A stretch of DNA of 64,000 bases from Phragmitibacter flavus (GTDB lineage Bacteria; Verrucomicrobiota; Verrucomicrobiia; Verrucomicrobiales; Verrucomicrobiaceae), in the NCBI RefSeq assembly GCF_005780165.1, contig NZ_VAUV01000003.1:248001-312000 (forward strand), written 5' to 3'. Of the stretch, positions 47,655-50,600 are shown in pieces; the stretch's first letter is position 1, and each line of letters begins with the position of its first letter. The notes under the pieces are model-generated. The model was given only the letters and a program-made list of their open reading frames with translations, had not been told where the DNA came from and did no database searches. The position numbers were made by a program, and so were the translations under genes.

Positions 47655-50600
47655 TCAATAAGCAAGCCAGGGGCCCAGCCATTTTTCAGCGAATTCGACA
47701 GTGACGCCTTTGCGCGCAGCGTAATCTTCGACCTGGTCCTTGTTGAGTTTGCCGGTGGCGAAGTAGCGGGCTTCGGGATGACCAAAGTAAAGGCCGCTGA
47801 CAGCGGAGCCGGGATGCATCGCCATGCTTTCGGTCAGGGTAACTCCGGTATGCTCGGTGGCGTCGAGGAGGCTGAAAAGAATGGGTTTCTCGGTGTGGTC
47901 AGGTTGTGATGGATAGCCGGGAGCAGGACGGATGCCGCGATAACGCTCTTTGATGAGGTCTTCGTTGGTGAGATCGTCCGGCTTTTCAAATCCCCAGTTG
48001 ATGCGGGCCTGGAGATGCAGGTATTCGGCGGTGGCTTCGGCAAGTCGGTCGGCCACGGCTTTGATCATGATGCTGGTGTAGTCATCGTGAGCGGCTTTGT
48101 AGGTGTCGGCAAATTCATCGGCACCGTGAACCCCAACGCAGAATCCGCCAATGTAGTCGGTGCGACCGCTTTCTTTGGGGGCGATGTAGTCGGCGAGGGC
48201 GAAGTTCGGTTTGTCCTTTTTCACCATCTGCTGACGCAGAGTGTGATAGACGCATGCGATTTCTTTGCGGGATTCGTCGGTGTAGACTTCGATGTCGTCG
48301 CCAATGCTGTTGGCAGGATGGAAACCGTAGCAGGCCCGGATTTGAAACTGGCCCTCGGCGATGACGCGATCGAGGATGGCGTTGGCATCAGTGAAAAGTT
48401 TGGCGGCTTCGATGCCGACCTGCTCCTGGAATTCGGCAAGAGCGCTGCGGAAGATTTGTTCTTCGGGCATCCAGCGTCCGCGCAGTTCCCAGGTGTGGAA
48501 GAAAGGCGACCAATCGATGAATGGGCGCACGGTTTCGATGGGCAGCGGATCAAACGTGGTGATACCGAGTGTTTTTGGAACGGCGATTTCCTGGGTGGCC
48601 CAGTCGCAGTCGAATTTTTTGGTCTGCGCTTCGGCGAGGGGGATGAGTTTCGCGGCTTCGTTTTTGTTGGCGAAGTCGGAGCGAAGTTTCTCGTAGCGTT
48701 GGTTGTGGGAATCGACGAATCCGGCGCGTTGATCTTTACTGAGCAGCGCGGTCATCACCGGCACGGAACGTGAGGCGTCGACGACATGCACAACGGGCTC
48801 CTTGTATTTGGGCGCGATCTTGATGGCGGTGTGGGCAGCGCTGGTGGTGGCTCCACCAATCAGCAGTGGCAGACTGAATCCGGTGCGTTCCATCTCGGAG
48901 GCGACATGCACCATCTCGTCGAGTGACGGGGTGATGAGGCCGCTGAGGCCGATGATGTCGGCGTTTTCGTTTTTGGCGGCATCGAGGATTTTGTCGCAGG
49001 CGACCATCACCCCGAGGTCGATGACGCGGAATCCATTGCAGGCGAGGACGACGCCGACGATGTTTTTGCCGATGTCGTGCACATCACCTTTGACGGTGGC
49101 GAGGACGATGGTGGGTGCGCCTTTTTGCGCTGCTTCGGCCGGGAGGAGGTCTGAGACGGTCAGTCTTTTTTGCTGCTGTCCGTCTGGACTTCCGCTATCT
49201 GCTGTCGTTGCTGACCCGCTTCCTGGAGGGACTGCAATGTCAGATCTTGAACCAGGACGAACTTCTTCTGCCAGTATTCCGTCTTGGAGGAATCCGCTGC
49301 GAACTTCGTTTGTGTATCGAGGGTCTTCGGCATGGCGTTCAAATAGGTTACGTAAAAGAGTGTCGCCTTGGTTGGCCAGATCAGCAACTGAATTATGCAG
49401 GTGTGCTTCCAGCCAACCCGCATCCCGGATGACCGGGGTGGTGAAGATTGAGTTGTCCACCACCAAGAGACGAAAACGGATGAGGTGCTGATACTCCTTC
49501 ACCAAAGTGAGCGTGCTGCGTGCGGATTGAAAGTGTCCTTTGGAGGAGCGCGACAGCGGGACGATGCGACCACCTGTCTCTTCCATGGCGCGGTGAACCA
49601 TGTTCTCCACAGCTTGTGGCCACGGGCAATACACGAACCGGATTTCCACCCCATGGCCGTGGGTGAAAGCGGCTTCCACGTGGGCCTCGCTGCGAGCCAG
49701 GTTTTGCAGGGTGCCGTCCATGATCAGGCCGATTTCCTGATGATTGGCGAGTTTTTTCGTGGCAGTGGTTTTGCCGCTGCCCTGACCGCCGGCGTTGAAG
49801 ACGATGAGGCTGTCGGCGGGGAGTTCGCGGAGCCTTTTGTGGTAGAGCCAGTCGATGAAGGCACCGGCGGGTTCGAGGGTGGCAATGCTCCATTTTTGGC
49901 GGGACTCGCGGGTGGCGGCGTATTCGGGGCTGAGTTCCTGGACGTTGTTGCGGTCGAGGACGTTGCCGAATTGGGCTTCGTAAGCTTTGGCGGTGAGTTC
50001 GAGATCGGCGGAGAGGTCGGCCGCGAACTGGATTTCGAGACGCCGTTCTTCGACATTGAGGCTAGGCTGGGGGGTATAAACAAATCCTTCGGTGAGGGTG
50101 ATGGTGCCGCCGCTGGCGAGGGCTTCCACGGTTTTTTCTGCCGCCTCAACGAGCAGTTCGCGGGCGCGAGCTTTGGCGGCTTTTTCGGCCTCCATGAAGG
50201 GTTGCAAATAGGCGACAGATTTTTTCATCACGCGGGCGCTTTTGACGACCTGCGGGAGGAACATTTTCCCGGCACCGAAGAGGTCGCCGACGACACTCAT
50301 GCCGTCCATGAGGGGTCCTTCGATGACCTTGAGCGGGATGGCGAGCTGGTCGAGGGCTTCCTGGGTGTCTTCGTCGATGAAGTCGGTGATGCCACGCAAC
50401 AGGGCGTGTTCGAGGCGTTTGGCGACGGGGGCTTCGCGCCAGCTGAGGTCGGCCTCCTGTTTTTTGGCGCCGGTCTGGCCTTTGAATTGTTCGGCGTAGT
50501 CGACGAGGATTTCGGTGGCGTCGGGACGGCGGTTGAGGAGCACGTCTTCGACTTTTTCGAGGAGTTCCTTGGGGACTTCCTCGTAGAGTTCGAGCATGCC

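What the first reader, a model, noticed from the sequence alone, without database searches (positions are those of the whole stretch)
49119..50183. Zeta-toxin-like P-loop kinase embedded in methionine synthase
metH is open for 1609 codons, about 380 more than usual, with every normal module in place. Residues about 768-1122 are extra and sit exactly at the flexible linker between the four-helix cap and the B12 domain. The insert carries Walker A GGQGSGKT and the sequence order of zeta-toxin/UDP-GlcNAc-kinase-like proteins found in phage and polyvalent toxin proteins ([42 protein letters not shown]). A mobile-type kinase is thus fused in frame into a core metabolic enzyme, at the hinge that controls cap opening. 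It may regulate MetH, gate it during phage attack, or be a tolerated insertion. I know of no such described architecture.
Basis: partly seen in the sequence, partly recalled or inferred. Interest (0 to 1): 0.92.

Follow-up and report, generated by a model that had tools for sequence, protein, structure and literature searches.

The report
Toxin-like kinase cassette inside metH
Many Verrucomicrobiota carry, inside the gene for the vitamin-B12 methionine synthase, a toxin-family kinase plus a hidden second gene in another reading frame; the pair is swapped between species like a mobile cassette, as if a toxin and its partner had been knitted into a core enzyme.

Summary
In detail: metH (47655-52484, minus) is open for 1609 codons, and about 356 extra residues sit in the Cap-Cob linker, with a zeta-family P-loop fold. 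It is no one-off: 39 named loci, all titled as Verrucomicrobiota or taxa in it, carry it in a metH frame. The nearest solved fold is gonococcal ng_zeta1 (Z 28.4), but the catalytic-base Asp is replaced (0 of 46 alleles) and the substrate contacts differ.

Three further findings change the picture. (1) The kinase's 3' end overlaps a +1-frame ORF ("orfX", 49160-49333, 57 aa here). It is intact with an ATG in 44 of 44 evaluable alleles (16 expected by synonymous shuffling), evolves as protein in its own frame, and its ATG lies in an RNA-unfolding minimum. (2) Kinase presence is scattered on the MetH tree almost at random; MetHs with near-identical flanks differ by a whole cassette. (3) The kinase C-half and orfX are exchanged together between MetHs.

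Best reading: a naturally entangled, toxin-antitoxin-like two-gene cassette nested in a core metabolic gene. Architecture, overlapping ORF and exchange are well supported by computation; translation of orfX, neutralisation of the kinase by it, and any biochemical activity are inferred and untested.

The parts
47655..52484 (-). metH, cobalamin-dependent methionine synthase with embedded kinase, 1609 aa
51423..52427 (-). homocysteine S-methyltransferase module (residues 20-354)
   Evidence: PF02574
50604..51320 (-). methyl-folate (pterin) module (residues 389-627)
   Evidence: PF00809
50205..50423 (-). Cap, four-helix bundle (residues 688-760)
   Evidence: PF02607; Cap+Cob of the AF2 model align to 1bmt, Z 27.6
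49113..50180 (-). inserted segment (residues about 769-1124) replacing the short Cap-Cob linker
   Evidence: comparison with kinase-less relatives
49287..50090 (-). ng_zeta1-subclass P-loop kinase domain (residues 799-1066)
   Evidence: AF2 pLDDT 92.6, 6eph Z 28.4, PF06414
49947..49955 (-). DRN motif (D844 R845 N846); N846 stands at the inferred catalytic-base Asp position
49767..49790 (-). Walker A GGQGSGKT (residues 899-906, K905)
49160..49333 (-). orfX: overlapping ORF in the +1 frame of metH, 57 aa plus TGA stop (P0002)
49170..49280 (-). MetH-frame linker after the kinase (residues 1069-1105), predicted disordered; the other-frame reading of orfX
   Evidence: pLDDT under 50 at model residues 415-451
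48831..49112 (-). Cob, cobalamin-binding module (residues 1125-1218)
   Evidence: PF02310
47706..48539 (-). activation (SAM/reactivation) module (residues 1316-1593)
   Evidence: PF02965

Best explanation
A two-gene, toxin-antitoxin-like cassette is knitted into metH. Gene one is a zeta-family (ng_zeta1-subclass) P-loop kinase, made in frame as a domain of MetH between Cap and Cob. Gene two, orfX, is a small protein with a conserved helix, started at an internal ATG in the +1 frame over the kinase's 3' end. Shown by computation: the architecture, its spread, conserved active-site positions with a replaced base Asp, selection on orfX in its own frame, an unfolded start region, and joint exchange of kinase C-half plus orfX between MetHs. 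Inferred: orfX is translated, binds its own kinase and holds it inactive; the kinase binds ATP and acts (altered chemistry) when the partner is lost; and the pair persists as a selfish or conflict-type allele that nonsense or frameshift mutations cannot purge without also breaking MetH.
For: Fold: 6eph Z 28.4, 261 residues, rmsd 2.3; next AvrRxo1 11.9, epsilon/zeta 11.0. Same site: kinase between Cap and Cob in one ORF in 35 of 39 named loci, one side unseen in the other 4. orfX: 44 of 44 evaluable alleles have the ATG and open frame (expected 16.1); in the tail the MetH frame has dN>dS in 19 of 20 differing pairs while the +1 frame has dN<dS in 17 of 17 computable pairs; pooled MetH-frame dS falls from 1.25 to 0.24 and 0.18; MFE at the ATG -2.8 against -7.5 in synonymous shuffles, 30 of 44 beyond 95% of their own shuffles, and for the window allele 10 of 1000 shuffles as weak. 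Cassette behaviour: kinase presence needs 21 changes on the MetH tree, shuffled mean 23.0; of the 13 kinase pairs with flanks above 95% identical, 11 have kinase C-halves only 39-51% identical; L167/L174 kinase C-half 94% with ACT 77%. orfX tracks the kinase C-half (partial rho 0.51-0.53), not MTHF or B12 (0.02, 0.14). No intact kinase without orfX among 44 evaluable; orfX outlives the kinase in L151. A stand-alone orfX relative lies in L217.
Against: No experiment shows toxicity, neutralisation or even translation of orfX. The inferred base position is N (45 of 46) or H (1), so the domain may be a nucleotide-binding pseudokinase, not a toxin. orfX matches no Pfam family near its cut-off and no NCBIfam family; its profile finds nothing in 18 loci with kinase homologues outside MetH, so a free-standing kinase-orfX operon was not seen. 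Shine-Dalgarno-like 4-mers precede only 9 of 44 ATGs. Synonymous constraint begins about 20 codons before the ATG, not sharply at it. Exchange is not free: kinase C-half identity still correlates with the flanks (MTHF rho 0.36, 0 of 500 permutations as high, against 0.74 for MTHF-ACT). In the closest pair (L181/L183) kinase C-half dN/dS is 0.45. PADLOC finds no match.
Confidence: 0.5

Rival explanations
1. Regulatory module: the domain is a catalytically altered, ATP-binding switch at the Cap-Cob hinge that gates cap opening, cofactor loading or reactivation of MetH; orfX is a small regulator of that switch. Compare the P-loop GTPase carried inside the B12 mutase IcmF (recalled).
For: Position at the Cap-Cob linker, a linker that changes between rigid and flexible with the state of the enzyme (PMC10567725, passages); P-loop Lys 46 of 46 while the base Asp is gone; a long helix runs from Cap towards the kinase and the Cob side is a disordered tether.
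Against: Presence or absence is nearly random among close MetHs and whole kinase C-halves are swapped, odd for a regulator of a core enzyme; 40 kinase-less and 14 remnant MetHs in the set of 81 lack it.
Confidence: 0.22
2. Anti-phage or anti-element defence: a TA-like pair triggered when infection shuts off host synthesis or disturbs MetH, giving dormancy or death.
For: Zeta-family kinase, relatives in phage and polyvalent proteins, polymorphism and cassette exchange as in immune loci.
Against: No PADLOC match; defence islands were not looked for; no trigger known.
Confidence: 0.14
3. Programmed +1 frameshift: ribosomes shift near the conserved Phe and make a shortened Hcy-Fol-Cap-kinase protein ending in the orfX helix; orfX is a tail, not a separate protein.
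For: Constraint passes from the MetH frame to the +1 frame at about the conserved Phe.
Against: ATG present in 44 of 44 against 20.7 expected; synonymous constraint already upstream of the Phe; unfolding centred on the ATG; the Phe codon is TTT in some alleles and TTC in others, with no shared slippery sequence seen; a stand-alone orfX relative exists.
Confidence: 0.09
4. Tolerated passenger insertion in a permissive linker, kept by drift and recombination.
For: Other inserts sit in MetH frames: Pribosyltran in L052, Y1_Tnp in L046 and L063; 14 remnants show loss is survivable.
Against: Pooled kinase dN/dS 0.10-0.11, as in the MetH modules; active-site positions near invariant; orfX under selection in its own frame.
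Confidence: 0.04
5. Assembly artefact.
For: None beyond the oddity.
Against: Same insert in 22 of 68 family genomes and 39 named loci (the two sets share genomes), including a single-contig genome (G067).
Confidence: 0.01

Closest known systems
ng_zeta1 of the gonococcal epsilon1/zeta1 toxin-antitoxin pair (6EPG/6EPH/6EPI; PMC5923241, sections 6, 8, 9 and passages read)
   Same: Rewired zeta fold over chain residues 2-272, base region before the P-loop, P-loop Lys, Arg175 equivalent, a small partner protein.
   Different: Base Asp56 is N or H here, Lys59 is Q, Asn75 is S; the C-terminal OB domain of ng_zeta1 lies outside the aligned part; carried inside MetH; partner ORF at the kinase's 3' end, overlapping out of frame, with no match to a known family.
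Zeta-like kinase domains of polyvalent proteins of phages and conjugative elements, including Verrucomicrobium (PMC5512222, passages)
   Same: Relatives outside MetH found here sit in giant frames (2895-3942 aa) or smaller ones.
   Different: Those have Asp at the base position (11 of 11 as aligned) and show no orfX match.
Synthetic entanglement of relE in ilvA (PMC10359631, abstract and outline)
   Same: Toxin-type gene knitted into a biosynthetic gene so that selection on the host gene protects it.
   Different: Man-made; here natural, with the toxin-like part in frame and the partner out of frame.
IcmF, isobutyryl-CoA mutase fused (4xc6 and others listed)
   Same: B12 enzyme with a P-loop NTPase embedded between its modules (recalled).
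   Different: G-protein chaperone, not a zeta kinase (recalled); no nested second gene known to me.
Polymorphic toxin cassettes (PMC3482391, search listing and start of abstract only)
   Same: Toxin domains diversified by recombination with cassettes; cognate immunity genes (recalled).
   Different: Proteins of conflict between cells; here a core enzyme.

Membership tests
Zeta toxin (PF06414) | Pfam match above gathering score | tested here: met
   Window kinase 43.5 bits against 22.3; 39 of 39 alignment members matched at E<=0.01
ng_zeta1 subclass | Rewired zeta fold with base region before the P-loop | tested here: met
   6eph Z 28.4, 261 residues, rmsd 2.3; motif order; PMC5923241 section 8
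ng_zeta1 subclass | P-loop lysine | tested here: met
   46 of 46; the P-loop pattern is broken in G152/L102, which was outside that set
ng_zeta1 subclass | Catalytic base Asp (Asp56) | tested here: not met
   N in 45 of 46, H in 1. Position inferred: three residues before the first aligned pair Q849-Lys59. Non-MetH homologues have D in 11 of 11 as aligned, 4 of them (L107, L119, L120, L123) outside the profile-matched stretch
ng_zeta1 subclass | Lys59 and Asn75 that contact the UDP-sugar | tested here: not met
   Q and S in 46 of 46, by the alignment
ng_zeta1 subclass | UDP-sugar 4'-kinase activity | not testable with these tools
   needs purified protein
Toxin-antitoxin module | Small partner gene next to or overlapping the toxin-type gene | tested here: met
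   orfX frame in 44 of 44 evaluable alleles; translation not shown
Toxin-antitoxin module | Cognate inheritance of the two genes | tested here: met
   orfX-kinase C-half partial rho 0.51-0.53; physical linkage explains part of it
Toxin-antitoxin module | Partner belongs to a known antitoxin family | tested here: inconclusive
   six orfX proteins: only two sub-threshold Pfam hits to unrelated families, no NCBIfam hit
Toxin-antitoxin module | Toxicity neutralised by the partner | not testable with these tools
   needs expression in a laboratory strain
Cobalamin-dependent methionine synthase | Hcy, folate, Cap, Cob and activation modules | tested here: met
Intein | Hint splicing domain | tested here: not met
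   no such family among the six Pfam hits of the whole protein at E<=1

The most novel reading that the evidence does not exclude
A natural selfish toxin-antidote allele of a core metabolic gene: the toxin-type kinase is part of MetH itself, the antidote is read from the same DNA in another frame, and the cassette spreads across species by homologous recombination in the conserved metH flanks. Carriers that lose it suffer, and diverging cassettes escape each other's antidotes, which keeps presence, absence and many alleles in circulation.
Probability: 0.35. Interest if true: 0.97.

Novelty: categorically new. Interest (0 to 1): 0.92.

Why it matters
Gene entanglement has been built by engineers to protect toxic genes from mutation; here nature seems to have done it, in a vitamin-B12 enzyme of Verrucomicrobiota. 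It gives a ready system to ask how a selfish pair can hide in a core pathway, how bacteria use overlapping genes, and whether nucleotide-binding modules can gate a B12 enzyme. A gene finder that reports one gene per stretch would see only an oversized MetH and miss the second frame. My searches of the held open-licence library listed no description (some searches showed only 20 of 59, 12 of 28, 10 of 98 and 10 of 65 papers).

Tried and rejected
Misassembly: rejected. Intein: no splicing domain in the Pfam scan. Classical UDP-GlcNAc or UNAM kinase: base and contacts replaced. Simple vertical inheritance: kinase presence on the MetH tree is no more clustered than shuffled labels (21 changes, mean 23.0, 97 of 500 as low), although 'none' and 'remnant' are clustered (19 against 27.2, 1 of 500; 8 against 13.2, 0 of 500). 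The tree was a quick LG+G4 tree and cannot tell gain from loss.

Programmed frameshift was my first reading of the +1 signal; moved me to internal initiation, but one search shows the constraint starting before the ATG, so it is not closed.

Led nowhere: viral contigs (0 of 63 candidates), phages, plasmids, PHROGs (best E 0.066) and PADLOC, PDB by single sequence, search of viral contigs with the orfX alignment. A free-standing kinase in G728 has a +1-frame overlap at its 3' end, but the orfX profile does not match it, so I do not count it. Two Python runs gave nothing useful: several loci read on the wrong strand; redone; no match printed; redone. The output was cut, so part of it was not seen.

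Selection in the sets: the 81-row tree set was chosen by me to hold kinase, remnant and kinase-less MetHs, so 27/14/40 are not prevalences. Of the 46-allele set, L053 (contig end) and L065 (gap) were not evaluable for orfX. G152 was not fetched into it; its kinase is decayed (broken P-loop) and a shortened orfX-like frame remains. One search missed two of 31 genomes with a near full-length kinase: G022 (long, divergent orfX) and G152. The 16 pairs were picked by hand for close kinases, and pairs share sequences. The 39 named loci come from two peptide patterns and miss distant relatives; some are the same genomes as G-handle loci.
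Full report
WHAT IS THERE. metH runs from 52484 down to 47655 on the minus strand, 1609 aa from ATG. All five MetH modules are present in order, plus a Zeta_toxin match at residues 916-1000; NCBIfam's methionine synthase model scores 1854 bits. In the stretch printed, the 40 relatives without the insert have 47-85 aa, the 14 remnants 161-252, and this protein 396. 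The extra part is about residues 769-1124.

IT IS CONSERVED AND WIDESPREAD. Of 68 same-family genomes, 41 gave a match and 22 (own included) the full or nearly full insert in a metH frame. A scan of named genomes gave 39 loci, all with titles in Verrucomicrobiota or taxa within it; the kinase lies in one ORF between Cap and Cob in 35, and in 4 one side is missing (L035, L053 and L065 by contig ends; L055 has no Cap match). It also occurs in MetH frames without the Hcy module (L044, L046, L050, L061, L062, L065, L069). Wider samples: 52 of 288 genomes of the order match (31 with a near full-length kinase in a metH-type frame, the rest by remnants or by kinases elsewhere), 15 of 384 of the class, 10 of 387 of the phylum. 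The own genome also has a MetE-type frame (792 aa), so MetH is probably not its only methionine synthase.

WHAT THE DOMAIN IS. AlphaFold2 on 39 aligned kinases gives pLDDT 92.6. The nearest solved fold is gonococcal ng_zeta1 (6eph: Z 28.4, rmsd 2.3, 261 residues), far above AvrRxo1 (11.9), epsilon/zeta (11.0) and PezT (10.3); only ng_zeta1 chains match by profile below E 0.001 (8.1e-8 and 1.4e-6). Like ng_zeta1 it has the 'rewired' order in which the base region precedes the P-loop (PMC5923241, sections 8, 9 and 6). The profile alignment puts K905 on Lys115, R965 on Arg175, Q849 on Lys59 and S866 on Asn75. The paper places the base at Asp56, three residues before Lys59; carried on without a gap, this falls on N846, just outside the aligned stretch. 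Across 46 alleles this position is N (45) or H (1), Q849, S866 and D844 are invariant, K905 is 46 of 46, D923 45, R965 45, R973 44. In non-MetH homologues the position is D in 11 of 11 as aligned, 4 of them outside the profile-matched stretch. So the MetH clade kept the nucleotide site but changed the base and the sugar contacts: altered kinase or pseudokinase. D844, two residues before, might serve instead; this is open. In the model with Cap and Cob, one long helix (model residues 89-137) runs on from Cap, the stretch after the kinase is disordered, and Cap plus Cob still align to 1bmt across the insert (Z 27.6, rmsd 3.4, 235 residues).

A SECOND GENE OUT OF FRAME. Rates gave it away: after the kinase, MetH-frame dS is lower than in the flanking modules in 8 of the 10 pairs (not in L168/L169 and L171/L177, whose cassettes differ), with dN close to or above dS in all 10. 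The +1 frame is open there and reads a conserved helical peptide (consensus EATLxxLRxAG) to a stop, 59 nt before the ATVKG motif of Cob in 20 of 44 alleles and 5-221 nt in the rest. In the window it is 49333-49160, 57 aa. Of 46 alleles, 44 are evaluable; all 44 have an ATG within 21 codons of the conserved Phe and an open frame to the stop. Synonymous shuffles that keep the MetH protein predict 20.7 with ATG, 34.8 with an open tail and 16.1 with both (alleles are related, so no P value). Among 21 same-length pairs with kinase C-halves over 62% identical, one is identical; in the other 20 the MetH frame has dN>dS in 19 (exception L181/L183), and the +1 frame has dN<dS in all 17 where both rates can be computed. 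Pooled over 16 chosen pairs, MetH-frame dS is 1.25 in the kinase before the ATG, 0.24 from ATG to Phe, 0.18 in the tail, 0.42 from the stop to Cob and 0.87 in Cob. With 47 pairs anchored on the ATG, dS already drops about 20 codons upstream (1.91 to 0.62). The 50-nt window centred on the ATG is unfolded: mean -2.8 kcal/mol, against about -7 at 30 nt to either side and -9.8 to -14.7 further out, and -7.5 in synonymous shuffles; 30 of 44 alleles exceed 95% of their own shuffles. For the window allele 10 of 1000 shuffles are as weak. Shine-Dalgarno-like 4-mers are found in only 9 of 44. I read this as internal initiation at a structure-free start.

WHERE orfX OCCURS. A profile finds it in 1 of 14 remnant MetHs (L151, E 6e-21, where the P-loop and kinase C-half are gone but orfX is whole), 0 of 40 kinase-less MetHs (two weak hits, E 0.17 and 0.6, not counted), and 0 of 18 loci with kinases outside MetH. 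In the order, 36 of 288 genomes match at E<=0.01; 30 of the 37 places are these metH genes (L151's genome included), one is a convincing stand-alone ORF (G003:C25, E 2.1e-7) and six are weak. In L217 that ORF is separate, with no kinase found by profile; the frames around it look like a mobile element, by eye only. No kinase among the 44 lacked orfX; orfX outlived the kinase in L151 and, in shortened form, beside the decayed kinase of L102. That is the order of loss expected for a toxin and its antidote, on two cases only.

A MOBILE CASSETTE. On a MetH tree without the linker (81 rows: 27 kinase, 14 remnant, 40 none, chosen by me), kinase presence needs 21 changes; shuffled labels need 23.0 on average, 97 of 500 as few. 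L148 (none) and L179 (kinase) are about 0.01 changes per site apart; L187 (none) sits with L181 and L183 (kinase). At DNA level identity is mostly above 90% (lowest 83) in 90-nt windows away from the linker and collapses only there for L148/L179, L187/L181 and L134/L169; L140/L174, L147/L178 and L142/L166 show a break at the same place with lower flanks, and L147/L178 also has gapped windows near the start. Several kinase-less MetHs inside kinase clades share the short linker of more distant kinase-less ones, which suggests exchange of two old alleles rather than repeated deletion. Among the 13 kinase pairs with flanks above 95%, the kinase C-half is 39-51% identical in 11 (exceptions L181/L183 at 92 and L191/L192 at 76), close to the 0.42-0.43 mean of pairs whose flanks are only 60-80% identical, while it is 94% in L167/L174 with ACT at 77%. 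Exchange is not free of ancestry: kinase C-half identity correlates with MTHF at rho 0.36 (0 of 500 permutations as high), against 0.74 for MTHF with ACT. orfX follows the kinase C-half (rho 0.57; partial 0.51-0.53) and hardly MTHF or B12 (partial 0.02 and 0.14), although Cob lies next to it. So kinase C-half plus orfX travel together.

HOW IT MOST LIKELY WORKS. Shown: one gene encodes MetH with the kinase in frame and orfX out of frame; both are under purifying selection; the pair is exchanged. Inferred: orfX is translated, binds the kinase domain and keeps it quiet; the pair behaves as a conflict or selfish allele. Because the kinase is part of MetH, nonsense and frameshift mutations would also break MetH, the logic that engineers used when relE was entangled in ilvA (PMC10359631, abstract and outline). 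The replaced base argues for changed chemistry; a non-catalytic nucleotide switch at the hinge is the main rival.

AGAINST KNOWN THINGS. [quoted passage not shown] Foldseek finds such phage proteins. The held library has no paper with both 'methionine synthase' and 'zeta toxin', and the listings showed nothing describing this; four of those lists were capped, and subscription papers and preprints are not covered. I call it categorically new as an architecture (in-frame toxin-family kinase plus out-of-frame partner, exchanged as a cassette inside a core enzyme); its parts are of known kinds, and the function is unproven.

Noticed in passing
L052 MetH ORF, residues about 1279-1676 (L052:7336-8595): A second insert, between Cob and activation modules, matches phosphoribosyltransferase PF00156 (1.2e-8), a domain reported in polyvalent proteins of Verrucomicrobiae (PMC5512222, passages).
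   Followed up: partly
L046:5960-6739 and L063:1818-2657: IS200-like transposase domain (PF01797, 3.1e-9 and 1.3e-7) read in frame inside the MetH activation region.
   Followed up: partly
L021 and L023, linker before the kinase: Reads with SGILPD...GRMP repeats that look like translated dispersed repeats of this phylum (recalled).
   Followed up: no
L191-L193 (kinase) and L194, L195, L198, L199 of family f2: MetH ORFs of 918-1243 aa; in the named copies of the first three the Hcy module is missing from the ORF, in the others this is judged from length only.
   Followed up: no
L114:6999-7994: Free-standing kinase of the same subclass (E 2.5e-44), with Asp at the base position, just downstream of a frame I read as MurA (by eye).
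   Followed up: partly
L061 and L102: Decaying kinases: L061 departs at 6 of 21 motif positions, L102 has lost the P-loop pattern.
   Followed up: partly
L168 (G022): orfX is 113 aa and poorly alignable, an outlying allele.
   Followed up: no
window 49485-52544, plus strand: A 1019-aa open frame antisense to metH, probably a by-product of codon bias.
   Followed up: no
window 45875-46477, minus: SecG-like frame near metH, by eye; I saw no obvious partner gene beside metH but did not test the neighbourhood across loci.
   Followed up: no
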